From Mortierella sp. BCC40632 (Eukaryota > Mortierellomycota > Mortierellomycetes > Mortierellales > Mortierellaceae): 64,000 nt of DNA. A program made the position numbers and the translations under genes. Numbering within the stretch: position 1 is the stretch's first letter; the number at the start of each line of letters is the position of its first letter. The stretch spans positions 1,363,501 to 1,427,500 of the forward strand of contig WAEK01000003.1 of the NCBI GenBank assembly GCA_011634665.1, read 5' to 3'. This document shows, piece after piece, positions 7,812-52,056 of the stretch. Under the pieces are notes generated by a model. That model searched no databases. It worked only from the letters and a program-made list of their open reading frames with translations, and was not told the DNA's origin.

Positions 7812-8621
7812 ATGTTGAATCTCGCTCGCTTGTCTCGCTCCGCGGCTACCCGCAATGTCTCCAAGGTACACCCCTACTCCCATTTGTGCTTGACTGATCT
7901 CCCCTCCTACCCATGGACTGATCAACACGTCCGCCTCCCCCAACCCCAAAGGAAAAAAAAGTCGCCACCTATATTCATCACAGGAGCCAAGAACCATGGA
8001 CACCGATACTCGTGGACTCTCAGCACCTCTTGTTTTCTTATTCTACTTCTCCACCCTTGTTGGTGGCGACTGTGGTAGAAAGAAGAAGAAAGAGGAAATC
8101 AAGCAAGCAGAATGTCGGATGCTAACTGTCCCACGCCTTTTTATTTTTTCCTTTGTATTTCGGTTACGACCCACCCCGATAGATTGCCGCTCGTCCTTAC
8201 AGCTCGGGCATCAACGGACCTGTGATCGGTATCGATCTCGGAACCACCAACTCGTGTGTCGGCATCATGGAGGGCAAGGTTCCCCGCGTTATCGAGAACG
8301 CTGAGGGTGCCCGCACCACCCCCTCGGTCGTCGCCTTCACCAAGGAGGGCGAATTGGTCGTCGGTCAGGCTGCCAAGCGTCAGGCTGTCGTCAACCCCGA
8401 GAACACTCTCTATGCCACCAAGCGTCTTATTGGTCGTCTCTTCTCGGACAAGGCTGTCCAGCACGATATTGAGACCGTCTCTTACAAGATCATCAAGCAC
8501 TCGAACGGTGATGCCTGGGTGGAGGCTCGTGGTAAGCAGTACTCTCCTTCCCAGATCGGTGCCTTTGTTCTCGGAAAGATGAGAGAGACTGCCGAGGGTT
8601 ACCTCAGCAAGAAGGTCGGTC

Positions 8622-8655
<34 letters not shown>

Positions 8656-10090
8656 TGCTCAGCGTCAGGCCACCAAGGATGCCGGTAAGATCGCCGGTTT
8701 GGAGGTTCTCCGTGTCATCAACGAGCCCACCGCTGCTGCTCTCGCCTACGGTCTTGACAAGGCCGGTGACCGCGTTGTCGCTGTTTACGATTTGGGTGGT
8801 GGTACGTTCGATATCTCGATCCTTGAGATCCAGAACGGAGTCTTTGAGGTCAAGTCTACCAACGGTGACACTGCCCTTGGTGGTGAAGATTTCGATGCCA
8901 TGCTTGTCAAGCATGTCGTCGAGGAGTTCAAGAAGGAGCAGGGTATCGATCTTTCTTCGGACCGCATGGCCATCCAGCGCATTCGTGAGAGTGTCGAGAA
9001 GGCCAAGATTGAGTTGTCGAGCACTCTCCAGACCGACATCAACCTTCCCTACATCACTGCCGATGCCACCGGCCCCAAGCACATCAACATCAAGATGACC
9101 CGTTCCAAGTTCGAGCTCCTCGCCAAGGATTTGATCAACCGCACCATCGAGCCCTGCCAGAAGGCCATCAAGGATGCTGGCGTCACCACTGGTGAGATCA
9201 ACGAGGTCGTTCTTGTCGGAGGTATGTCCCGTGTTCCCAAGGTCATCGAGACCGTCAAGCAGGTCTTTGGCCGTGAGCCCGGCAAGAGCGTCAACCCCGA
9301 TGAGGCTGTCGCCATCGGTGCTGCTATTCAGGGAGGTGTCCTTGCCGGTTCCGTCACCGACATTCTTCTTCTCGATGTTACTCCTCTCTCTCTCGGAATT
9401 GAGACCCTCGGAGGTGTCTTCACTCGCTTGATCAACCGCAACACCACCATCCCCACCAAGAAGTCTCAGGTCTTCTCCACTGCTGCCGATGGTCAGACTC
9501 AGGTCCAGGTCCGTGTCTTCCAGGGTGAGCGTGAGCTCGTCCGTGACAACAAGCTCTTGGGCGACTTCAACTTGCACGGTATTGCCCCCGCCCCCAAGGG
9601 TGTTCCTCAGATCGAGGTCTCTTTCGACATTGATGCCGATGGTATTGTCAACGTTGGTGCCAAGGATAAGGCTACTGGACGCGATCAGTCCATGTCGATT
9701 GTTGCTTCTTCGGGATTGTCGTCCGATGAGATTGAGAAGATGATCAAGGACTCTGAGCTCTTTGCTGACTCTGACCGCAAGAAGAAGGAGCAGATCGAGG
9801 CCACCAACCAGGCCGAGTCGATCATCTCGGAGACTGAGAAGAACATGAACGACTTCAAGGAGCAGCTCGATGCCACTGAGGCCCAGAAGATCCGTGACCA
9901 CATTGTCAAGTTGCGTGAGGTTCTTGCCAAGGGTGAGGCTGTTGAGGCTGAGGAGATCAAGAAGGAGTACACCGACCTCCAGCAGGGATCGCTCAAGCTC
10001 TTCGAGATGGTCTACAAGAAGAACGCTGCCAACAACGCCAGCTCTTCCACTGACGGTCCTACCGTTGACAACCAGGAGCCCAAGAACTAA
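7812..10090 (+). CDS. SSC1: Mitochondrial HSP70 chaperone (Ssc1 type)
   Basis: Two exons, 7812..7865 and 8183..10090, giving 653 aa. Exon 1 encodes only the start of the mitochondrial presequence ([18 protein letters not shown]), so the 317-bp intron separates targeting signal from mature protein. The ATPase domain begins [14 protein letters not shown] (about residue 32), contains [11 protein letters not shown] and DLGGGTFD, and connects by the conserved linker DVTPLSLG (about 416) to the substrate-binding domain and helical lid. The C-terminus is a short Asn/Ser/Asp-rich tail without the cytosolic EEVD motif, which supports the matrix form. The protein drives import across TIM23 and folds matrix proteins using ATP, with a J-protein and Mge1. 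Codon use is strongly biased to C-ending codons, as in abundant proteins. A 661-codon open frame on the opposite strand is a by-product of this bias. Confidence 0.97.
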
Positions 10091-11309
10091 GTCGCTTTTT
10101 TGGGAACTTGATTGAGACCATTTCATTTTCTTTTTTAGATTCTTTATCCAAGTTTGCTTTATTCGTCATTCTTTTTTAGAGTCATCATCCCCCACCACCA
10201 CATCCCCCCCACCATGTACCACCAGACACTTTTTTTTTCCCCTTTTGCACACCATTTTTTTTCTTTTTCATAGTATTGTTTTCTAGCCTCTTCCTTGTGC
10301 ATCCACCATTTGGGGATCTCTTGTATTTAGTTTAATCCCAAGAAACAACTTGAAATAGATCGTCTTTTTTTTTTTATTATTCATACTCAAATTGTAAAAA
10401 AAAAAAAAAAAATGCTCCTCTTCTGGATGGTTTAGTTGGTTAGTTGGTGGTTAGTTGGGAGATTTCTTTGGATCAAACGCCAGTTCATTCGAGAGGAAGC
10501 TCTCTCTCTTCGGAAATGACTGGCCTTGAGTCATTTTTTTTTTATTCATGAGGAAGAAAAAGCTCCGTGGCAACTGTTGTCAATCTTAACGACTATCCTT
10601 AAACTTTTTTGGTTTTGGTTTTGGTTTTTTTTTTGGTTGGTTGACGCTGGTACTATTTGTTTGATGTCAGTATCGACTCGTTGGTATTGTGGCCAAAGAG
10701 TGCACTATGATTGCTCCGTGCCCTCTTCCCCTCCCCCTTCTTCCTGTCTCTCCTCTTGTCTTTTTTTTTTTTTTTTTTTTTTTTCCTGGGAGATTTCTCA
10801 CGCGTCTCATTCTCGAAGAGATACCAGGTTTTACTTCACTTTTTGGTTATTTGTCCTACACTTGTTTCTACCTACTCTAACCTCAATTGCTTGGGGCTGC
10901 ACCCATACAACTCAAGTGCTTTTTTTTTTTTTTTTTTTTTCTTTCTTTCACATGTCTACCAACAGTTGAGAATTGAGGGAGGAAGGAGGAATCGATAGAG
11001 TCCAGAGCTCCCAAGAAGAGTTGTGTTGAGGCTGTACGAAGAAGCGAAGAGATAATCTAGTTCATATCGACTAGACTCTTTTGTGCAAATGTGTGCGTGC
11101 GTGTGTGTGTGTGTGTGTTGTGTATGTATCGATGTTGTTGTTGTCGTTGGGTGCGTCACTGTTGTTGTTCTCTTCGCGACCTGCGTTGCCCTTGAACCAT
11201 AAATGAAACAAGATGGAGAGTGAAAGAAAAAGAAAAAAAAGAGCACTCGACCGAGTTTGAGGGTGAGTGACTGACGGACTGAGTGACTGACTGAAGGAGT
11301 GAGTGACGC
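10091..11309. other. Intergenic region downstream of HSP70
   Basis: About 1.2 kb of T-rich low-complexity DNA with homopolymers at about 10397-10411, 10760-10784 and 10920-10940 and a short TG repeat near 11097-11118. It must hold the 3' ends of two convergent transcripts (HSP70 and the SOD-fold gene). A possible extra 3' exon of the SOD-fold gene lies here and is discussed under findings. Confidence 0.55.
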
Positions 11310-33208: not shown

Positions 33209-33352
33209 ATGGACGTAAGCAAGAGCAAGGCCGCAATGGCCTCGTTCTTGGCCTCGTTCCTACTTTCCGCCATCCCTGCCTCGGCTCAGCTCGATGTTGA
33301 CGGTAAGGACCCATGACAACCACCGGCCTCGCTATCCATGAAATCCCCCGAC

Positions 33353-33437
<85 letters not shown>

Positions 33438-36400
33438 TTCCCTCTCCTGTCCTCGCGTCTCGTTGGTTGCAACACCGTCTCCCAAATCGCCCAATGCCCG
33501 TTGGTCCCTTTTCGAAATCCCATACGTTAACGCTTCCAGTGAGCCATCTTTCTGTGTCTGGCAATGGATACATAAAAGAAGATAATAAGGCAGGAAGGTT
33601 AGCCCCTTCCACACCCGAAAGACGGAGTGGATGCATTGCTCCAGTGGCCATTGGGTCCCTTGGGATCTTTTTGAGTGCATCTGGAAGGGCTTTTTGTGCC
33701 TTGATAGATAGCACATCGTCAGAAGGGGAAGGCCCGGAGCTGTCCGTGTTTTGCAGCCTTGTATGCAGTCGGTCGTTCGGCAGATTTTCCCGTAACGATT
33801 GTCTTGTACACAGCGCTAGCAGAGCCAACAGCTCTGGTATGTCGGTATCCAACCACAGGCATTCTTTCTGACATGGCAATGGGCATGGGGTCGATGGATG
33901 GGTAACGCATACCCCTTCCCCTTCCCCTTCCCCTTCCCCTTCCCCACACCACACTACACCCAAAAACGCCAACTCTCACTTTCCCAACGTCCTTCTCCTG
34001 TTCACCCTCTCTATCAGCCCGACATTTTCCTTTTTTTTCTTTTTTCAAACGCAAACTCCTGGTACACTTTTTAGTCCATGTACTCGCCAGCCCCTACTCT
34101 CTTTACCTTCAAAGTTTACAAAGTCAATGTTGTTCAAAGAAGGGTCTATGCTTTTTGCTGGGGTCCCTTCCCTGACCGACGTTAGCTGCAGTCTCCACTC
34201 TTTCCCGTTATCCACGCATGCCACACCACTTTTTCACTTTTTTCGTCTTCCCCCTGCATTTTTTTTCTTTGCCTCGCCTGCGGCTATTTTTCAGCAACAG
34301 GGGGGCAATGACGACAGGGATCTACTATGGGGAATAGTTGCACCTCTTCTATCATGTCCTTTGTCCTTCAACAAACACACACACATTCTTTAGTCTCTGT
34401 GATGCAATCCGGAGCGTTTTTGCTCTTGTGGAATGGGGCCTCACTTCAAGGAGACTTTTTTCTTTTGGCTCCCTTTTGGTGTGGCGCTCTTTCTGCTCTG
34501 CTCTTCACCTTTATATTCCCAAGGCTCTCGGCCCTTCTGACTCCCTACCCGCCCAAACGATGTGGCTCACGCAACCCACCATTGAAATACCATTCAAGTG
34601 AGCCGTTTGCAGTGGTGCTCAATTAATATTGCCCATCGTCTCTCTTCTCATCTCTGTCTCTCTTTCTCTCTCGACCAAATGCTCTCATCCAATATTCTCA
34701 CTACTACGAGTCAATCAAAGCCAGCCAGAGATGGACTGGACCACCTGCGCTACAACCATGGCTACATGTCTAAAATATGCACGATGCTTACCATATCCAA
34801 TTTTTCTTCTTTTCTTGCTTATTTCCATTCACAGCGAGCAATCCCGTGAGCAAATGGCATCCGGAGCCACCTCCAGTTCTTCAACGTCCATGTGTAGTCA
34901 TCGACAGTGCTCGGAATATGACTTACATGATCGGTTATGACTCCAAAAACACTTTGGTGTTCATGTTCATTGAACAATCCGAGTGCAAGGCCAACTGGTC
35001 GACCTCGATCTGGGTTTCTTTGCCCTACCCTGGTGGTAAGCGGCCTTACTACACCGACCAGTGTTTCCTCACTGCTGCTGGTCATTTTGCTGTCCAGTAT
35101 GAGGGAGGTATGGCTGTCTGGGACCACTGGGCCCGTACCTGGACCTACAAGAACATCTCGTGCCCATTGAAGTATCCCAACAATGCTGCCTTGGTGTACC
35201 AGAACAACGAGTCTAAGTTGGATGACTTTTTGATTCACTGGGAGGATGGTAGTGGTACTGGACATCTCACTGGAGTTCAACTCCAGAACGACGACGTGTA
35301 CTCGTGCTCCGAGTTGGCAACTCCGTAAGTACCTTTCTCTCTTTTTCTCTCTCTCTCTCTCTTTCCCTCTCTCCCTCTTCTCTCCTCATGAGCTTCTTTC
35401 TCCCCTTTTGTTCTGTTGGCTCCCCCCTTTTTCTTTGTTCTTATCTGTTCTGATAGGCTGTGACGTGCCTGGGATCAGATATGGCTGTGTTTCATCCTAA
35501 TCGCATTAAGATTTTTTTTTCCACCCTTTATGTCTGTTGGTACCTGGTTCCTGAAATTTCGTTTACTCACTCACCTATTCTGTTCTCTCTCTCTCCCCTC
35601 CTTCCTCCTTCACTAAAATAGAAACATCCCAACTCGCATGTCCTTGGCTGCCTCACCCGTTGATGGCAAGACCTACTTCTTGTTCGGTGCCAATGGCTCG
35701 GGTTGGTATGACATCGAGTCTGCCACTCAGCCCTCTCAGACCCCAGTCAAGACCATTGGCGAGTTCCACCCCTTGCCTGCTATGACCATCCGCAACCCTC
35801 GTGCCACTAACTACAAGGGTAGTCTCTGGATTCTTGGCAAGGTAAGAAAAAATTTAATAACAAACAAACAAACAAACAAACAGGAGATTTATTTATTTAT
35901 ACACGCCCACCCACTAAACCATTTCCTCCTTTATCCTCTCTTTTTATCCTTCCCTCCACTAGAACGATGTCGGTGTCGGTGTATGGAGTGTGAATACGAC
36001 TGCTGGAGCACCTTATACGATCGTTCCCCGGTCTCAGGGTACCCCCATTGCAGGAGGTTTCACCATCGCCAACTGCGGTTCTGGTATCATCATCTACGGA
36101 GGATGTGAACAGGCCGGAGACTGCTCCACGAGTCTCAAGCCCAAGGATCCTTTCCCTCCAAACATCATTACCCCACCCACCGTGATCTACATCCCTCCCG
36201 ATGGTAGCAACAACGGTGGTAACAACGGTGGCAACAACGGAGGAAACAACGGAGGAAACAATGGCGGCAATAACGGCGGCAACAATGGCGGCAACAATGG
36301 CGGCAACAATGGCGGCAACAATGGCGGCAACAACGGCGGCAACAACGGCGGCAACAACGGCGGCGATAATGGCGGCAACAACGGTGGCAACAACGGTGGC

Positions 36401-39400
36401 AACAATGGTGGCAACAATGGTGGCAACAATGGTGGCAACAATGGTGAAAAAAACAACGGTGGTAACAATGGCGGCAACAATGGCGGCAACAACGGTGGTA
36501 ACAACGGTGGTAACAACGGTGGTAACAACGGTGGTAACAATGGTGGTAACAATGGTGGTAACAATGGTGGTAACAATGGTGGTAACAATGGTGGTAACAA
36601 TGGTGGTAACAATGGCGGCAACAACGGTGGCAACAACGGTGGCACCGATGGTGGTACCTGGGTTCCTCCACTCCCCACTAACTTCCCCACTGGTCCTCCA
36701 ACTGGCGGTCCCTCGATCACCGTTCCCACTGGTGGTACCCTTACCCCTACTGGACCCGTTATTGTGCCCACTGGCCCCGGTGGTCTCCCCGACGGTGGCT
36801 CAAAGACTTCTGGCGGAAACAAGACTGGTGCCATCATTGGTGGTATCATTGGTGGTCTTGCCCTCATTGCCCTCATTGCTATCCTCTTCCTTGTCGCTCG
36901 CAAGCGTAAAAGACGTCAGGAGGAGGAGGAGGATGCCTATGGCCGTCACCCTGGTGTCGGTGGCATCGGTGGCAATGGCTCTCACTCGTCGATCCACGGC
37001 TCTGGTAGCAACATTCCTCCCTTGGTCCCTGTTGGACCTATCGGTGATTTGAACGAGGTTGTCGTCGATGAAAAGAATGTCTCTCATCCTCATCTCCCCG
37101 GCGGCCCCGATGGTAACAACAACTTCCCTGGCGGTCCTTCTGCCGACGGCTCTTTCCCTGGTGGACCCAATGGCGATGGCTCTTTCCCTGGCGGTCCTGA
37201 TGGTGGTAACCACTACCCTGGTGGTCCTTCCGGTGATGGCTCTTTCCCTGGTGGACCCAATGGCGACGGTTCTTTCCCTGGCGGTCCTGGTGGCGATGGC
37301 AACGTTCCCACTAACAACAGCAACTCTCATCTCGGTGCCATTGGTGCCATCGGTGCCATCGGTGCCATCGGTGCTATCGGTGCTATTGCCCACAAGAAGC
37401 AAAAGAAGGATGACGAGAAGCAAGAATACGAAGAGTACGAAGAGTCCAAGAACGGTCATGTCGTGCCTCCTGTTCCTGTTACTCCTGGTGGACCCAACAA
37501 CGATAAGCCAACCAAGACTCCAAGCAACCATGGTGGTTTTATTCCCGTTCCTGTTCCCGTTCCTGGTGGCCCAAGCTCCGATAACTCGACGAACCAGCCC
37601 TCTGGCAATGGTGGCATTGTTCCCCCTGTTACTCCTGGCTCCCCTGACTCGCCCACGACTGAATCTAGCAACAACCGAGGTATCTTTGCCGGCGTCATTG
37701 CTGGTGTCGCTGCCGCGGGTGCTGGTGCCGCTGCCATCTTGAAGGGTCGCAACACGGACGAGAAGACCGTTAGCTCCCATACCACTGTTACCACGACCAA
37801 GACTGGAGGCAAGATCTATACCACCTCTGGAACTGGCAACCGCACTGTCACCACCGAACGTACTGAGACCGGCGACTGCCGCCATGTCATTACTGGAGTT
37901 GTTCCCGGAACGACGACCATCCGCACCATCACCCAGCGCACGGAATCTGGTGATGAAATCTTGGTTCCTGTTGATGGACCTGAGGGTGAGGAGCGTGAGG
38001 TCGTGACTGAACGTTCTGAGAATGGCACAATCCGCTACCTCATTGGTGGTTTGATTGCTGGTACTGTTGCTGGAGGCGTCGTTCGCCACATCCTTCGCAC
38101 TGACTCTGATATTTCCGAGAAATCGATTACCGTTACCTCTTCGACCCGTATTGTGACTGAGCGTACCTCGACTGGCGAGATCCGTCATTTGATCGTTGGC
38201 GGCTTCAGTGGCAATGCTATCCGTGTCTTGACTGAGCGCACTTCGTCTGGTGAACGCTTGACCCCCACGAACGAGCCCACTGGTGAGCTCCGCCATGTGA
38301 TTACTGAGCGTACCGAGTCTGGTGAGATCCGTTACATCGTTGGTAGCATCATTGCCGGAGGTGTCGTCCGCACCGTCATCCCCGGAGGTGTCTCGACTGT
38401 TACCTCGTCTACCCGTATTGTGACCGAACGTACCACGACTGGTGAGATCCGCTATGTCATCATTGGTGGATTCAGTGGAAATGCTATCCGTGTCTTGACT
38501 GAACGTACCTCTTCCGGAGAGCCTCCTCGTTTGATTCCCACGAACAATGACGATGGTGAGCTTCGTCATGTTATCACTGAGCGTACCGAGACCGGCGATA
38601 TCCGTTACATTGTCGGAACCGTTATTACCAGCAGCAGCACCACCACCCGTGTCATTTTGGGACCCCGTATTGTGACCGAGCGTACCTCGACTGGAGAGAT
38701 CCGCTATGTTATTGTTGACCAGTACAACGGCAATGCTATCCGCACCAAGTTTGAGCGCAGCCCCGAGACCAACGAGTTCACTCACATCCCCGTCAAGGAA
38801 CCTGAGGGTGAGCTTCGCTATGTTACCGAGGAGCGCACTGAGACTGGCGAGATCCGCAAGGTCATTGGCGCTGTTATCACCGGAAATGTTACCACTACCA
38901 CCAAGACTGTCACCTCTCCCGAGAGCTCGTCCTCGCAGATCCGCATTGTCTCTGAGCGTAGCGAGAATGGCGAGACCCGTTTCTTCCAGGTCACGAATGG
39001 CCCTGATGGTCAGGAAATCCGTACTGCTGTTGAGCCCACTGGTGATGGCGGTTACCGCATCCCTGGAGGTGCTGTGATTGTTGCTGCTGGTGCTAACTTG
39101 GTTGGACAGAACCACCACACTACCACGACCACTCGTGTTGTCGGTGGAGGTACCTTGACCCCTGCTGAACAGGCCGCTAACAAGACCCAGATTACCTTGA
39201 AGTTGAGCATCATGCGTTACGAGCGTGCTGACGCTTCTCAGGCTGTCCCTAGTGCTGAGGTCGGAATTGTTGTCTTCTCCAAGTTCAAGAAGATTGCTTC
39301 TGGCGATGTTGATATCGAGAACACCGAGTACACGCATGTTGAGGAGGTCAAGGCCCCCAATGCCCGCCGCACTGTCAAGTGGATGAAGACCGAGGCTCAC

Positions 39401-40093
39401 TGGAAGCGTGAGGCCGGTATGCTCCAGCACTTGAAGTCTGATCGTTACATTGCTGATCTGTTCACCTTGTACTCGCTCCCTGCCTTTGCCGAATTCCGCT
39501 ATGTTTCGATCCTCGGAAGCTTCTCTCGCACTCTTGAGTCGTACATGAAGACCGAGTCCCTCAACGTCAACCAGGTCCGTGTTCTCTCTGCCTCGCTCTC
39601 GGATGCCCTCCGCTGGTGCCACGATCATCATGTTGTCCACTTGAACATCCGTCCTGCCTCGTTCTACCTTGACGGAGTTCTTGGCAAGGATACCATCAAT
39701 GGCAACGGTCAGTTGGTCTGGAAGCTCTGGAACTTTGGCCATGCTCGCTTCGTTGGTGAGAATGTCGACACCGAGTCTACCACTGTGACCTATGCTTCGC
39801 CTGAGATCTTGATTGGACGCAAGAACAAGGAAGCGACTGTCCCTGCTGCTGTTTCGATGGATCGCTGGTCTTTGGGATTGATCTTCTACGAGCTCCATGC
39901 CCGCAAGACCTACTTCTCGTCTGCCAACTTTGCTGAGTTCCAGTTGACGTCGCCCGAGAACAAGTTCGAGCCTAGCTTGGATCTTGTCCGTGATTCGAAC
40001 GCTCGTGCTGCTATCCAGGGTCTGTTGGACACTGATCCCGAGAAGCGGTTCACTCATGATGTCCTGAGCGAGGTCTACTTCAACCGGGCTTAA
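33209..40093 (+). CDS. Receptor-like transmembrane pseudokinase with Gly/Asn and TERT-type repeats
   Basis: Exons 33209..33302, 34835..35324, 35622..35841 and 35963..40093 (1644 aa). Exon 1 is a signal peptide ([18 protein letters not shown]). Residues about 32-345 form an extracellular domain of short beta-rich blocks ([34 protein letters not shown]) resembling a Kelch-like propeller, which I cannot prove. Then come about 36 NNGG units (about 350-497), a Thr/Pro stalk, one transmembrane helix ([20 protein letters not shown], about 557-580) with a stop-transfer RKRKRR, PGGPxGDGSF repeats, six GAI units, a second hydrophobic patch, and about 13 copies of TER-T/S-x-S/T-G-E (about 894-1278). The C-terminus (about 1341-1638) has a protein-kinase fold signature, but the catalytic loop is HLN (1494-1496) instead of HRD and the metal motif is NFG (1525-1527) instead of DFG, so it is a pseudokinase. 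SPE, DRWSLG and the late Arg are kept. It probably senses wall or external ligands. Confidence 0.85.
33357..33435. repeat. (CT)n microsatellite in intron 1 of the pseudokinase gene
   Basis: About 79 bp of uninterrupted CT dinucleotide, starting about 55 bp after the 5' splice site at 33303. Confidence 0.95.
33912..33945. repeat. (CCCCTT)n repeat
   Basis: Five to six copies of CCCCTT in the same intron. The opposite strand has runs of four G spaced by two A, a G-quadruplex-type pattern. Confidence 0.85.
36208..36648 (+). repeat. Coding tandem repeat, 12-bp unit encoding Asn-Asn-Gly-Gly
   Basis: About 36 units inside the pseudokinase gene. Sub-blocks are nearly identical at DNA level: GGC AAC AAT types early, GGT GGT AAC AAT types late. 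One unit has Asp for Asn, and one is interrupted by Glu-Lys. The block pattern indicates expansion by slippage or unequal exchange. Confidence 0.95.
37850..38990 (+). repeat. Coding repeat, [10 protein letters not shown] module, about 13 copies
   Basis: Protein-level repeats inside the pseudokinase gene with core TER-T/S-x-S/T-G-E-I-R-x-V/L-I and about 30-residue spacing. They alternate polar cores with short hydrophobic strands ([15 protein letters not shown]), suggesting a stacked beta structure. DNA copies are diverged. Confidence 0.85.
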
Positions 40094-40525
40094 AGAGAAG
40101 AAATGATGGAGGGAAAGAGGGACATGATCAAGACTGGAGCGTTTTGATAACGTAGCATTGGTCCTGGTTTTTTTTTGTCTTTATTTCTTTCTTTCTTTCT
40201 TTTTTTTCTCTTGCCCTCCAACACCTAATATCCCTCTCATCCTTTCCTCCTCTCCGACTCTTTTTTTTTTTTTCTTTCTTTTTTCTCTTTCTCAAAAACC
40301 CTTCTTTCAAAAGAAGAAGGGGAAAAAAAAAGTAATTATAATTATCTTTATACACAAAAACACGAGGGAGCACTGCTACCAGTGCATGCTCTGCTACGTT
40401 GCTTTACTATTCTCTCACACACACAACACACACACTCTCCATCTTTCAGAATATATCTTGCCATCTATTGACATTTTTAAATATATATTATTAAAAAAAA
40501 AAAAGCCGAACTGTTTTTATTATTA
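40094..40525. other. Intergenic region between convergent pseudokinase and DMAC1-like genes
   Basis: 432 bp of T-rich and A-rich low-complexity DNA holding two 3' ends. Nothing else seen. Confidence 0.5.
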
Positions 40526-44855: not shown

Positions 44856-47800
44856 CTACTTGATCATGGAAGACAAGAAGATCGACTTGATAATCTGGGG
44901 CAGGTCCTTTGTATCCATGCACACATGGGCATGAGATCCCAAGGAAGCCTTAAGCTTGTCTGCCTGGTCAGCCAGGGATCCGATGAAGATCATCGAGGCA
45001 GTAACTCGGTCGTCCGAACGAAGAACTAATATGGGCGTTTTTCAGAGCAAGAGTAGAGTAATGATTAGAAATCGATATCCTTTCCTCTAGATAAATCGGT
45101 GACATTCAAAAAGAACAAGAAAATGCACATACTGCGACCAAGGTCCTCGGGCTTGATGTTGTACTGTCCAATGTTGGCATCCGAGAGCACGACCACAATG
45201 TAATCATCCGCATCCTCCTTGACAATCTCACGCATTGCGTTCGCCGTAGCCGACAAAGTGTTGTCTCCACTCAGACAGTATTGAGAGTGAGCACTCATTT
45301 GGGAAATGATTCGGAAGACCTCCTTCTCCGTCTTGGGGTACTTGCCCTCCTTGACAAATTCGAGGTTTGGCGAGTCACCCGAATGGCCAATGATTGTGTA
45401 CGCGAACTTGTGCTCAAAGCTCTTGAACGACTCCATAATCACTATTATTGTTCAAAGGATATGTCCCTTTGTTAGTACTACTACAAACCATCCTAACGTC
45501 GGACAACAAACAATACCAACAACAACAAAACTTACTGAGGGCAACTTCCATCGAACGTTCCAATCTTCGGTCATGGTTATTGAAGCGGAACATACTAGCC
45601 GAGAGATCAAAGACAAAGTACATCTTCTTGGGCTTTTGTTGGAAACCCATCTCAGGGTCATTTTCACCTCGCAACTTGTAAATGTTGTGCTCACCCGTCA
45701 ATCCCTCGATCAACTTGGTGTCATCCAGATCACCCGAGCTTTGGTTCTTGAGCCACACGCGTTCCTTGTTCTTGGCCTCAATACCCTCGAGTACCACACG
45801 AAGCTCTCGGATTTCTCGCTGAACATTCTCAAGATAGTTCATGTAAATCTTGGCATCAGCTGCAGACATATCCATCGACTCGAGGTGCTTTCGCATTGTC
45901 ATGTTGTGCATTTCGACCTGTGCATCCGAAACAAGCTTGGGTGGAGGAGCGCTCGTACGCTAAAAAAAAAAAAAAAAAAGAATGGTTAGTACGCCTGGCC
46001 ATTCTCTGGAGGCAGCAATAGTGTACCACCCAAAAAAAAAAAAAAAAAAAAAAAGAGGGCAGCTTTGACTTACAATATCCAGCTTGGAAACATCATCAAA
46101 GCTTGGCTTTCGACCTTCGGCAGGAGCACCAGTACGTGTACCGGACCCAGAGCCAGATCCATTGCCATCGCCATCACCACTTCCGTCGCCATCACCACTT
46201 CCGCTTCCTGCTCCTCCTCCTCCACCGCCACCACCAAAAGAGCCACTGGCAGCACTAATATCTGCTGGCAATTCATCTCCTTCACCATCCATGCTTTCTC
46301 CTCCGATCAAGGGCAGACCGTCCGGGCCCACCATTTGACCTTCAGCATTGATAAAATGACCCTTCTCATCCTTGTACAGAATAGCCAATGTACGACTGTC
46401 CAAGGTACCGACCAATTTCTTCCAAGTGCTAGCCGACTGGAATAGATCCGCAGCGTTGACTTGCCAGACACGGACCGAGCCCGAGTTGTCCATGGTCAAC
46501 AGTGCACCATCAGGAAGTTCGGTCATCGAGGCAATGGTTCGGTCCTGAGGAAGCCCCTTGAATCCGGTGATGGGTGCATCCGAACGCAAGACACTTGTCA
46601 CAGGAATCGTCGTTGGAATGACCACACGCCAGATACGTTGTTCGGTAGCACTAAAGAGTTCCAAGTATGCTTCACCCTTTCCGCTCTAATCCAAGTCAAC
46701 AAAAGCACAAAATAAATGACCAGCGGTTAAACCAACATCCTATCTCTAGAATCGCGCAACAAGCAAAAAAAAAAAAAAAAAACAGAGAGAGGAAGAAGGA
46801 GAGGCGACTTACAGGAGATGGGATAATCTTGGCCATTTGGTCTGTCTTGCTCAAAAAGAGAGATGCACTCTGGAGGTTCGAATACATGTTCCGGATCTGC
46901 TCATCCGCAATTGGTCGCATATACGAAAACACATCCAACGTGGCCTCGGGGTCATTTGACAGCGCAAACTTTTCAATGTTCTTGGTAATTGCGGTCACCA
47001 CACTGTCGTTGGTCGTATGCATCATCCGGATGACATCGCCATACTCACCTCGACCAGGCTCGATAATCGCTGGTGAGATAAAGGTCAATCTATGCTTGGC
47101 CTTGGCACCCACTCCCGAAATCGAAACTTGCTGGATCTTGTCTGGGACAGGGGAGTTAGTGTCACTGGTAAAGACCAAATGATAATCGCCGGCATTGCAA
47201 TCCTTGACCAACCAAAGATGAGGGTCAATCATGTAAAATGCAGACACCTGAATAGGAAGCTCGACAATATGCTGCAATCCGGTGTTAAAGTCGGCCACAA
47301 CAATGTTAGCTCTGTTCTCTTGGTAAAAGGCAATATAGCCCTTGTGGGCCTGGGACTTGTCCATCAAGGACGGAATTGGCGAGAGTCCATTCAGCATCAC
47401 CGACACAATCGAATTCTTGCCAATATCCAGGGACAAGAACGAGTTATCGGCAGGATTGTGCATGCACAGGAATCGAGTGTCAGCCACGGTCTTGACCAGA
47501 GCGAGTCTTAGTCGTGGAGGAGCCCGTTGGAGTGGGAAATACTCGTACATATCAGCGCTCTTGACGGTTCGGTGGGCGGCATCGATAAAGTGGAGTGTCA
47601 CAGGGTTGGTCGAGATGGCATACAGGTTGCCTTGCTCCGTCGAGACAATATCCAATGCTTCGCCGCGAGTGGGGATCTTGAAATGATACAACTGTTCAGA
47701 AAAGACAACTGATCGACCCTCAGAACGCTCCAGATCGCGTGGCACTCCAGGGGTCACACTCCAACCACCACGGAACACAATCTCTTGCGACTTGACAGTA

Positions 47801-50800
47801 CACGCCTGGACAGGCACATCAGACAACTTTTTCCAAGTTTCAGTCAAAATGGGCTCGCTGACTTGGACCTGTTTACCGAGCTGAATCGTAAATTCGGACT
47901 CGAGTCCCACGGGAATACCATGCTTTTGGAACGTCTCGATCAACATCTCTTTCGAGTCGCTGTCGTACTGGTCGAAATCAAACACGTTCTGAAGGATACG
48001 CGAGATACCTTCTTCAGGATAGATCTGCATATGTCGAACAACGTTCACCAACTCTCGAGTCGAATAAGGGTACGAGAGCAGACCTTCGTCCACCAAACGA
48101 CGCAAGTCCTCAAATGCAGCCGTCAACTTGAGAAGTAATTCCTCAGGTACGTCAGGTCCATACTTGCGCAACAAAAACATTTCTGACTCGGCATCCGGAT
48201 TATCGACTGCATGGCATGAAAAGACATCGCCCACCTCGCGGAAAAAGTCGTTACCCAGGAATGGGAATCCAGGACGGTTGGCTAGGACCATCATTCGGAA
48301 ATCTGGATGAATAACAATCTCTTCCTCATCCGTGCCCTCGGTTGGTTTAGAAACGATGCGTCGGCCATCGCTCAGAACCATTTGACCGTCCTCCAGCAGA
48401 TTACGGATGACAGAGGTCACATAAGTAGGAGCCTTGTCTGCCTCATCGATCACAAGAATGTATCCGTTCTGAACAGACTTGACCAAGGGCGAATCCTCAT
48501 ACTTGAGAACACCATCCACAATCGAGGGTGTGGCCGTCAAGCTCTGAACAGTTGTATCACGATGCAACTGGATATATTCGCGTGGCAAACGCAAAAGCTG
48601 AAGGAAGTAGTCTGCCAACTTGTTCTTGCCGACACCCTGGTTACCGATCAAGAGCAAATGTTCGCCCAATTGGAAGTCCTTCAACATTTCCATCAAGATC
48701 TCGGTTTGCTTGGGATTCTCATGGAAGACAATGTTGGGGATCAAGACTGGGTTCGAGTCCTGGCGGACAGGCTCTTCAATATGCCCAATCCGGAGTGCCT
48801 TGGGAGCCTCTCGACTAGGCAAGACCTGGATCTCGAGCTACTCAAGCCATTTTTTTTTAATGTTTAAATAGAATGGTAAGTACCATTACGTCTCCTTATC
48901 AAGCATAACTACCAAAACAATCAGATTGATCAACAAACGTACCTCATGAGCCTTATAGGGCTTGGGTTTGGGCACAATGCCATTGGCTGACAAGAGCTGG
49001 TTCAAGGCATCCCTGGCAATCGAAGGTAAGAACCGTGACAGCGACACTTTGTGGATGGAGTCATAGAGACTCTCCCCAGGGAAGACTGTAAGCCGGCGAC
49101 AAATACGGATGAGCTGACTATGGAGAATTTAGCATTGAGGATAAAGTCCCATCTATGGTTAATAAGCCTCTTCTAACACCCAACAATAAAAAGAAGAAAA
49201 CTCCTTCAAAATAACCCAAGTAAATCTTACCGTGTCGACATGGCAGACGACAATGTCTTGATTGTTTCATCTCGAGAAATACGGAGTTTGTTAGCAAAGG
49301 CCAGCAACAGATCCAAACTCTCCTTGGCAATTCCGGGCGAAAGTGTCTCCATGAGTTGGGTTTCCTCCTAAAGAAGCCATTTTTTTTAAGTTAGTTCGAC
49401 TATCATACTTTCCTTTCACAATTTCATTCCGCCAAATAAAAGGACTGGGTTGTATCTACCTCCAATGAGAGAGGTCGGACAGTGACAAACTGGAACATGC
49501 TCACAATCTCTGGAGTAAGCCATGATCCAGGTTTGCCACCTTCTGTGCCACTGGAAATAGGTCTTGCCAAGGCAACAATACGGAAGGAAGGAGAGATACG
49601 TAACAGTCCCCTTTGAGCCATCTCCTTGTCTGACCAACCATGCTGGGCCTGCAACCGGTCAAAGTGTTGGTGACGGAGCAACTTGCGACCATCTGGCATG
49701 GCTGTCTCACGTTCCTCAACCAGTCTTTGCAATGACACCATCGTTCCAAAAGAAAGAGTCTCGATACCGTCCATCACCGCCAATGCTCCGCTCAATGCAG
49801 CCTTGACAAGGGCTGAGTTCTCCCAAATGGTATCACCCGTGAATGTAGTGCTTCGGCGTTGAAGCAGGTCGCGAGAGGACATGTCCTTGTAGAGCGGAAT
49901 AAATTCCACTTTGTAACCAAGATTTCGTCCGAAATGACGCATCAACGCTGATTTACCAACACCCTTGGATCCGATCACACAAAAGTCTCCCACAGAATGA
50001 GCGAGCAACATACTGGTCAAGGTTGCCATGTGGTAAGGTGTCTCGACAAAGTAAACTGCAGGCTCAAAGGGATAAGGTCCACAGTGCATCTCGGCCGAAA
50101 CTCGCTTCTTGGAGATGGCGTTTTCAAAGGTGACCTTGGCCTGTCCAGTCTCAGAACGCTGAATATCCTGGATCATGTATGTCGAATCACACTGATGAAC
50201 AATCGATCCCTGCTCCTCATCAAATCCTTCGTCCTCACGGCCAAGTCCCAAGAATCCAAATCGTTGGTACGTCGCCTCGATCAAACTACGTTGTTCTGCC
50301 TCACAGGTCGGGAGCAATGACCATGGATACACCAAATCGAGCAAAAATCGGGGTTGTGCCTCTTCAAAGCGACCCAGCAACTGGATAGCACTCTCGATCG
50401 ATACTGGGAATTCGGGAATCGTAACATTGTTCATCATTGTGTTGGCTGTAGACTCGTTTCCTAGGTTTTGGTAATGCTGCGATCCCAAGACCATGGCCAC
50501 GGAAATCAAACGCTCCAACATATCCTGGGGTACATTTGGAGCCAACGAGCGCAAGTGCTGGACCTGAGATTCAAATCCTGGGGCCTTGACATCGCGCGAC
50601 TGGAAGCGTGAGCGGAGAGGTGGGTCCAATGGATGACCCTGATATTGAGGGACGGGTAGACCCAAAGCAATGACCGTGAACTTGTCGCTGACCTTGACCA
50701 GCTTATGTTTCTCCATAGTCTCTACGGCATCTTGTCCGCCTTCCTTAACGAGGAGGTCAAAACGTTTGGGGTTGACCAAGAATCGTCCATCTTCCAGGGC

Positions 50801-52056
50801 CATTTCTCTGTTTTCGAGCAAGTTGTTGAGGACCGGGAGAACGTTTCGCTCTGCCTTTTCAATACCGTCCAAGATCAGGATACGACCTTCTGTCGCGGCT
50901 CGGACACAGGCTTGGTCAACATAGAACGCTGTACCCCCAACAATCTCTCGGCGTTGCTTCAAGTCACTCTCGGTCACATCCTTGGAAAGGGGGACGTACT
51001 CGACTTCACGGTTGGTTCTAATTGAGCAATCATCTTTTTTAGTTAAGGAAGACATTTTTTTTTTCTCGTGACTCCAATTTGCAGAGACAATGTCCAGGCA
51101 CCTACAGCTCTGCAAACTTGAGGGCGATGGATCGACGAAGGTAGCCTGGAGGACTATTGAGTTGAAGATCAGACAGCAAAAATGATTAGACTCTTTTTGG
51201 TGGCGGTGGCGGTGTGTTTGTCGATGAAGGGTGGATATGTGATTTAAGCTGTCCTTACCCAATCAAGAACATGTCTTGGCCAAGCTTGCCCTTCTGCATC
51301 ATCCTAGTGCACAGGACCCATCATAAAAACGAAAGGTTTGACAATAGAGAAAGGGGCAGTGGTTAGAGGCTATGATCGACAGTGAGGAAGGGTCAAAGGG
51401 AATAGTGCGTAGTTGGAAGAGTACCATCGCAGATGTCGAAGCACTTCCTAGAAAGTAGAGTAGCAGCGCAGCGAGAGGAAAACAGAGTTAGGGTTTGAAA
51501 AGGCAGGCACATGGGAGGAGGAACAGGGAAAATGCACACACGGGACTGCTTCGATCGGAGAAGTCAGCGATTCGACGAATGTATCAAGTGAGGAGAGAGA
51601 AAGGAGACACACCTGGGATCCTTCAAAGAGAGGTTGATCGGTGCTTGGGACAAGCTCGGGATTCAATGCCGGATTGACTGCAACCGTCACATCGCCGATC
51701 CGGACCTCGCCATACTCTGCTAAAAAACGATCATGGGAAGGGAGAAAGAGGGAGAAAGAGAGAGAAAAAGGGTATCGAGCCGAGTCAGTCGCAGTGCTCA
51801 AAGAAAACAACAACGTCAGCATCGGCTCCCCAGTTGTTCACATGTCAATCAAGTACAGTGCTGTGCAGGTCTATTGGATCTTTGGAGTTTGCGACTTACG
51901 AGACCCTTGGTTAGAAGAGCTAGTGGCGGAAATGACCAGACTTCCTGGTCGAGTGGTGCTCTCGGAGATCACATAGTCGGCTGTGTGCGACAATGCTCGA
52001 GAGATTTGTTCTATGCGCAGACGAGCGGTATCCGCGGTCTTTGGATCCATGGCCAT
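44856..52056 (-). CDS. VWA8: von Willebrand factor A domain-containing AAA+ protein (VWA8)
   Basis: Thirteen minus-strand exons from 51900..52056 through 51613..51719, 51425..51447, 51259..51303, 51106..51153, 49460..51017, 49231..49367, 48943..49117, 46813..48837, 46074..46685, 45536..45959, 45133..45441 and 44856..45025 (1929 aa; human VWA8 about 1905). Three AAA+ modules: FLIGPPGYLRRS with LILDGIEKAERN, CVIGSKGVGKSA with AVMDGIE, and LLIGNQGVGKNK with LVIDEADKAP. The first Walker A lacks the usual Lys. EVLRHLRW and LTNREVEYVPLS are VWA8 hallmarks. After a beta-rich segment and a Gly/Ser/Asp linker, the C-terminal VWA domain has the metal-binding motif FDLSASM (DxSxS) and VVVLSDANIG. VWA8 is a mitochondrial-matrix midasin-like ATPase of unclear substrate; the N-terminus here is not a strong presequence. 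All 12 junctions keep phase. Intron 1 has tandem acceptors (TAGCAG), so one residue is ambiguous. Confidence 0.93.

What the first reader, a model, noticed from the sequence alone, without database searches (positions are those of the whole stretch)
33209..40093. Single-pass receptor-like pseudokinase in a fungus
The sequence shows a signal peptide, a putative propeller ectodomain, one transmembrane helix with a basic stop-transfer signal, and a C-terminal kinase-fold domain. Receptor kinases of this layout are typical of plants and animals and rare in fungi. The domain keeps the SPE, DRWSLG and late Arg structural motifs but has HLN for HRD and NFG for DFG, so phosphotransfer is unlikely and scaffolding or allosteric signalling is more plausible. 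The combination with NNGG and TERT-type repeats is not one I recognise.
Basis: partly seen in the sequence, partly recalled or inferred. Interest (0 to 1): 0.86.

Follow-up and report, generated by a model that had tools for sequence, protein, structure and literature searches.

The report
Conserved fungal receptor-like pseudokinase family
This soil-fungus gene appears to encode a membrane protein with a propeller-shaped outer part and a dead kinase-like inner part; it belongs to a family conserved among related fungi, and it may be an unusual kind of fungal surface receptor.

The parts
33209..33302 (+). Exon 1; residues 1-26 are the predicted signal peptide
   Evidence: Hydrophobic N-terminus ending in ASA-Q; similar N-termini in six annotated relatives
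34835..35324 (+). Exon 2: first part of the propeller ectodomain
   Evidence: Splice model; relatives of the spliced ectodomain
35622..35841 (+). Exon 3: middle of the ectodomain
   Evidence: Splice model; sub-threshold Kelch_2 match at residues 200-223
35963..36193 (+). Start of exon 4: end of the ectodomain (to about residue 345)
   Evidence: Propeller model of the ortholog P0042; 8 of the protein's 10 Cys and 6 of its 15 N-glycosylation sequons lie in residues 27-349
36206..36649 (+). NNGG repeat: Gly/Asn-rich stalk (residues 350-497)
   Evidence: 12-bp repeat, 37.6 copies at 36201-36654; stalks of other composition at the same place in relatives
36827..36898 (+). Transmembrane helix, residues 557-580, beginning GxxxGxxxG
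   Evidence: Kyte-Doolittle 2.87, Hessa-type sum -3.72
36899..36916 (+). Basic stop-transfer RKRKRR (residues 581-586)
   Evidence: Sequence; basic run after a TM helix in relatives
37325..37387 (+). (GAI)n Gly-rich hydrophobic segment, residues 723-743; marginal for membrane insertion
   Evidence: 9-bp tandem repeat at 37332-37383
37679..37741 (+). Second Gly-rich hydrophobic segment, residues 841-861; marginal
37820..39028 (+). Region of eleven TER(T/S)xxGExR-type repeats (about residues 888-1290)
   Evidence: no Pfam family above cut-off there, no significant PDB sequence match
39176..40090 (+). Kinase-like (pseudokinase) domain, residues 1340-1644; stop codon 40091-40093
   Evidence: Pfam, AlphaFold2, Foldseek and VIA-align
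39377..39379 (+). Beta-3 Lys (K1407), kept
   Evidence: Alignment with an active kinase
39638..39646 (+). HLN in place of HRD (residues 1494-1496)
39731..39739 (+). NFG in place of DFG (residues 1525-1527)

Best explanation
A cell-surface, type I transmembrane receptor-like pseudokinase. Supported by sequence and prediction: a secreted-type N-terminus, a kelch-like propeller, a flexible Gly-rich stalk, one strong TM helix, and a kinase fold without the residues for phosphotransfer, conserved over many species. Inferred: the propeller lies outside and binds a ligand, a cell-wall glycan or another surface protein; the stalk carries it through the cell wall; binding changes the spacing or dimer state of the TM helices (GxxxG motif); and the pseudokinase passes this on by binding and allosterically controlling a cytoplasmic partner (an active kinase or another signalling protein), not by phosphorylating it.
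Against: No ligand, partner, localisation or expression data. Only 7 of 20 group A rows scored for TM plus basic run (many are truncated, and three of the seven were scored on a Gly-rich segment). Two marginal Gly-rich segments could add membrane passes. All TM calls rest on hydropathy scans, not on a trained topology predictor. GxxxG at the start of a TM helix is common in single-pass proteins (recalled), so it is weak evidence for dimerisation. Some relatives have the module without a TM helix in their gene models (P0014, P0015, P0016, P0017, P0030), so a membrane is not essential to every form, or those models are wrong or cut.
Confidence: 0.55

Rival explanations
1. Cell-wall tether or stress sensor of the Wsc/Mid2 type: the propeller grips wall glucan or chitin, the stalk is a spring, and wall stretch is reported by cytoplasmic clustering. 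The kinase-like domain is the docking part.
Against: No WSC domain among the Pfam matches listed; stalk Gly-rich and not mainly Ser/Thr in the rows measured; fold matches to lectins are no better than to kelch domains, and a shared fold shows no function.
Confidence: 0.2
2. ER-lumen sensor with the layout of IRE1 or PERK (signal peptide, beta-rich lumenal domain, TM, kinase fold).
For: Same order of parts as IRE1 (recalled).
Against: No RNase (KEN, PF06479) match in the TM-to-end part of the protein; the genome has a separate KEN locus at C11:217784-218315; no catalytic residues; no IRE1 or PERK lumenal domain among the 50 rows shown in each.
Confidence: 0.1
3. The kinase-like domain still has a chemical activity (unusual kinase or another nucleotidyl transfer).
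For: Beta-3 Lys and alpha-C Glu are kept in group A (Lys 20 of 21, Glu 19 of 21 rows); group C keeps the Asp of DFG as DFT in 43 of 43, and 6 of 20 group B rows keep it as DFS.
Against: The catalytic Asp is gone in 82 of 82 readable rows; Ser stands at the catalytic-loop Asn position in all 39 rows; in the window the DFG Asp is gone too, and no Gly-rich loop motif is seen.
Confidence: 0.06
4. Adhesin-like or structural surface protein whose kinase-like domain is a relic used only for anchoring or trafficking.
For: Gly-rich and low-complexity make-up of much of the protein.
Against: The kinase-like domain is as well conserved in group A (61-78%, 18 rows) as the ectodomain (61-72%, the 12 best rows), and is kept in three separate groups.
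Confidence: 0.09

Closest known systems
Plant receptor-like pseudokinases (BIR2, CRN, GHR1, ZmDRIK1; passages of PMC7158045)
   Same: Receptor-like protein whose kinase domain lacks catalytic residues; GHR1 is described there as a scaffold
   Different: Kelch-like propeller instead of plant-type ectodomains (recalled); very long Gly-rich stalk and cytoplasmic repeats; fungal; kinship to plant RLKs not tested
Animal receptor pseudokinases (HER3, ROR, RYK, PTK7; recalled)
   Same: Type I receptor with a dead or impaired kinase domain
   Different: Tyrosine-kinase lineage (recalled); here PF00069 fits far better than PF07714 (72.2 against 20.0 bits); no partner receptor known
Kelch-repeat propellers (KLHL12, NS1-BP, KEAP1)
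   Different: Here predicted to be extracellular, with cysteines and sequons; Pfam kelch models stay under cut-off
IRE1/PERK (layout recalled)
   Same: Order signal peptide, beta-rich domain, TM, kinase fold
   Different: No KEN RNase found; separate KEN locus in the genome
Fungal wall sensors Wsc1/Mid2 (recalled)
   Same: Signal peptide, ectodomain, long low-complexity stalk, one TM helix
   Different: Cytoplasmic kinase fold; propeller instead of WSC domain

Membership tests
Eukaryotic protein-kinase fold | Bilobal kinase fold | tested here: met
Active protein kinase | Catalytic Asp of HRD | tested here: not met
   HLN in the window; Asp absent in 82 of 82 readable rows of 84
Active protein kinase | Metal-binding Asp of DFG | tested here: not met
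   NFG in the window and in 17 of 19 readable group A rows (window included), the other two NFS and NFD. Kept in group C (43 of 43) and 6 of 20 group B rows
Pseudokinase | Kinase fold without catalytic residues, conserved as such | tested here: met
Pseudokinase | No phosphotransfer in vitro | not testable with these tools
   Needs protein
Receptor-like kinase layout | Signal peptide, ectodomain, TM helix, kinase fold in one protein | tested here: met
   from a gene model and hydropathy, topology not measured
Receptor-like kinase layout | Exactly one TM helix | tested here: inconclusive
   One strong helix, two marginal Gly-rich segments
Receptor-like kinase layout | Ligand-dependent signalling | not testable with these tools
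   No data
Plant RLK/Pelle or animal RTK clade | Phylogenetic placement among these kinases | not tested
   The tree held family members and own-genome kinases only
Kelch family | Kelch repeats over Pfam cut-off | tested here: not met
   Kelch_2 13.2 bits against 21.3
Kelch family | Propeller fold like kelch | tested here: met
IRE1 | C-terminal KEN RNase domain | tested here: not met
   No PF06479 in the Pfam scan of the TM-to-end part; the own-genome match is elsewhere

The most novel reading that the evidence does not exclude
A fungus-specific cell-surface receptor system: three old groups of transmembrane pseudokinases in Mortierellaceae form a receptor set that signals wholly by allostery. 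Cytoplasmic proteins that share the PRLF-type domain (my label) are possible partners, because that domain appears in the same chain as this module in P0016 and P0030 and as the cousin pseudokinase domain in L028.
Probability: 0.3. Interest if true: 0.85.

Novelty: new variant of a known kind. Interest (0 to 1): 0.62.

Why it matters
Fungi are generally thought to lack receptor kinases of the plant and animal type (recalled); one comparison of 101 species reports a lack of LRR receptor kinases in fungi (PMC2939053, passages). A conserved family of receptor-like proteins with dead kinase domains in one fungal family would look like an independent origin of this layout, and gives a place to look for how early-diverging soil fungi sense their surroundings. 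Some Mortierella species can be grown and transformed (recalled), so the idea can be tested.

Tried and rejected
Gene-model fusion artefact: rejected as far as predictions allow, since relatives carry the same order of parts in one protein (P0003, P0004; P0027, P0037) and the N-terminal exon has counterparts in relatives. No single public group A protein that I saw runs from signal peptide to kinase-like domain: those with the signal peptide are short or partial, those with the kinase-like domain start later. One-off decay of a kinase: rejected by conservation. IRE1: see rivals. Kelch by sequence: under cut-off.

Led nowhere: the PDB sequence search with the TERT region gave only E 0.16 and above. 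The PDB profile search with A5 was spoiled because several rows of A5 are full-length proteins: the rows shown are mostly kinases, the rest other matches that I did not follow, so it says nothing about the ectodomain. NCBIfam gave only matches far below cut-off, the best E 1e-11 with 44 bits against 460. No IRE1 or PERK lumenal domain appeared among the rows shown, which does not exclude kinship.

Results against the reading or limiting it: hits were chosen by similarity with a word filter, and only the 7,991 best candidates were scored, so absence outside Mortierellaceae is not proven. could return only short proteins, which favours partial ones. Six of 20 group B rows keep DFS and 43 of 43 group C rows keep DFT, so loss of the DFG Asp is not general. 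In one search many group A rows are truncated before or inside TM1, and P0006, P0011 and P0034 were scored on a Gly-rich segment. P0018 is more degenerate (alpha-C Lys, NFD, no TER repeat) and P0017 lacks the beta-3 signature. Stalks could be measured in 7 of 14 rows. The tree used 33 rows of those held; branches of L026, L028 and four active rows are flagged as long; 5 of 13 offered loci gave an active-kinase row, two of them (L017, L029) the same gene. The placement of L026 is not supported (92/49).

Library searches for prior reports: (four of them found no paper at all). No listed title or abstract start is about this family. Seen as found passages only: PMC8778642, PMC2838846, PMC2939053, PMC7158045, PMC12548735, PMC10234402, PMC4859500; in the last three the word pseudokinase refers to other proteins or stands in a reference. 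The other listed papers were seen as listings only.

Full report
What is there. The window lies in a 49.9-Mb genome, eukaryotic and fungal by its introns and best hits. A four-exon gene on the + strand (33209-33302, 34835-35324, 35622-35841, 35963-40093) is the only combination tried that stays open from the ATG to the stop; it encodes 1,644 aa. In order: signal peptide; ectodomain to about residue 345; NNGG stalk (350-497) and a Pro/Thr/Gly-rich stretch; a strong TM helix (557-580) followed by RKRKRR; a Pro/Gly-rich part with two marginal hydrophobic Gly-rich segments; eleven TER(T/S)xxGExR-type repeats; and a C-terminal kinase-like domain from 1340 on. Eight of the ten Cys and six of the 15 sequons lie in residues 27-349; six there compare with 2.5 in shuffles, P 0.02.

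The gene model has outside support, piecewise. Six relatives have annotated N-termini that run from a similar signal peptide into the same ectodomain start. P0003 and P0004 carry ectodomain, stalk, TM, repeats and kinase-like domain in one protein, without the signal peptide. In group B, 10 of 20 rows show ectodomain signatures and the catalytic-loop region in one protein, and two of these (P0027, P0037) also have a hydrophobic N-terminus. Fourteen of the 18 ectodomain hits are marked partial, some ending in the Gly-rich stalk, though that search could return only short proteins. Some members bear unrelated kinase names.

It is a dead kinase by its motifs. In alignment with the active kinase of locus L029, the beta-3 Lys (1407) and alpha-C Glu (1418) are kept, while HRD is HLN, DFG is NFG, the catalytic-loop Asn is Ser, and no Gly-rich loop motif is present. 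Of 84 rows (window, 20 group A, 20 group B and 43 group C database proteins), 82 have a readable catalytic loop, and none has the Asp (no loop was found in P0034 and P0040). HLN: 19 of 19 readable in A with the window, 6 of 20 in B (12 HLS, 1 HLC, 1 HLG), 43 of 43 in C. DFG position: A 17 NFG, 1 NFS, 1 NFD, 2 unread; B 6 NFS, 6 DFS, 5 NFN, 3 NFG; C 43 of 43 DFT. So the catalytic Asp is lost throughout; the metal Asp is lost in A, mostly lost in B and kept in C.

It is a family. In this genome the kinase-like domain has relatives at L025 (C11), L026 (C16) and L027 (C3), each with a strong TM helix ahead of the domain, and L028 (C5), in whose open frame none was found. Their loops read HLN, HLS, HLN and HLN. 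In public data, 40 relatives were found with the window's domain, 18 with its ectodomain and 43 with the L027 domain. Groups A, B and C are each one side of a branch with starred support, A and B together 100/96, and all 28 family rows are apart from the five active rows (four different genes) at 100/99. Ectodomains of A and B are related (probability 100%); A and C could not be linked (4.9%).

Which parts vary. The stalk is Gly-rich in the 7 of 14 rows that could be measured, of different composition and 131 to 281 residues long, as expected for a spacer. By a simple pattern the TER repeats number 0 to 14 in the 20 group A database rows (one row with none) and 0 to 2 in the 20 group B rows. 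A TM helix with a basic run after it is found in 4 of 5 own-genome members, 16 of 20 B, 39 of 43 C and 7 of 20 A rows; many A rows are cut before or inside it, and three of the seven were scored on another segment.

How it most likely works. Supported: layout, folds (predicted), loss of catalytic residues, conservation. Inferred: the propeller binds something outside; the stalk spans the wall; TM helices pair through GxxxG; the pseudokinase docks and controls a partner. A lead to the partner: the C-terminal part of the cousin L028 resembles stretches of P0016 and P0030, which carry the group A and group B module without a TM helix (26% over 150 and 28% over 81 residues, E 2e-6 and 1e-5 in a set of fewer than 110 proteins). 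Domains found in one chain with the same module in different proteins often work together; those gene models are unverified.

Novelty. Receptor-like pseudokinases are known in plants (passages of PMC7158045) and animals (recalled). One comparison reports a lack of LRR receptor kinases in fungi (passages of PMC2939053). Ten searches of the library listed no paper on this family; the library lacks most subscription journals and the preprints. The layout is thus a new variant of a known kind: new ectodomain and stalk, new lineage, kinship to the known receptor clades not tested.

Noticed in passing
window 36800-40180, minus strand: An open frame of 1,126 codons runs antisense to exon 4; most likely a by-product of codon usage, not tested.
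   Followed up: no
window 8144-10165, minus strand: A frame antisense to the HSP70 gene at 8183-10087 (+) matches Pfam PF10712 (NAD-GH) at E 5.9e-146; this suggests that the Pfam family reflects antisense HSP70 frames.
   Followed up: partly
P0014 and P0015: Two relatives from different fungi share the N-terminus MCFGISEQEIEDALSNAKAAF ahead of repeats and kinase-like domain, without a TM helix.
   Followed up: partly
P0017: Kinase-like domain behind HEAT repeats; a real fusion or a gene-model error.
   Followed up: no
L028, and P0016 and P0030: The pseudokinase L028 has a C-terminal part resembling stretches of P0016 and P0030; a possible partner domain.
   Followed up: partly
window 46699-51262, minus strand: Two neighbouring frames with AAA_5 (dynein-related) domains, perhaps one large gene.
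   Followed up: no
P0059 against L027: The best hit of the L027 domain is from Lunasporangiospora selenospora, 84% identical, a hint to the window's genus or a near one.
   Followed up: no
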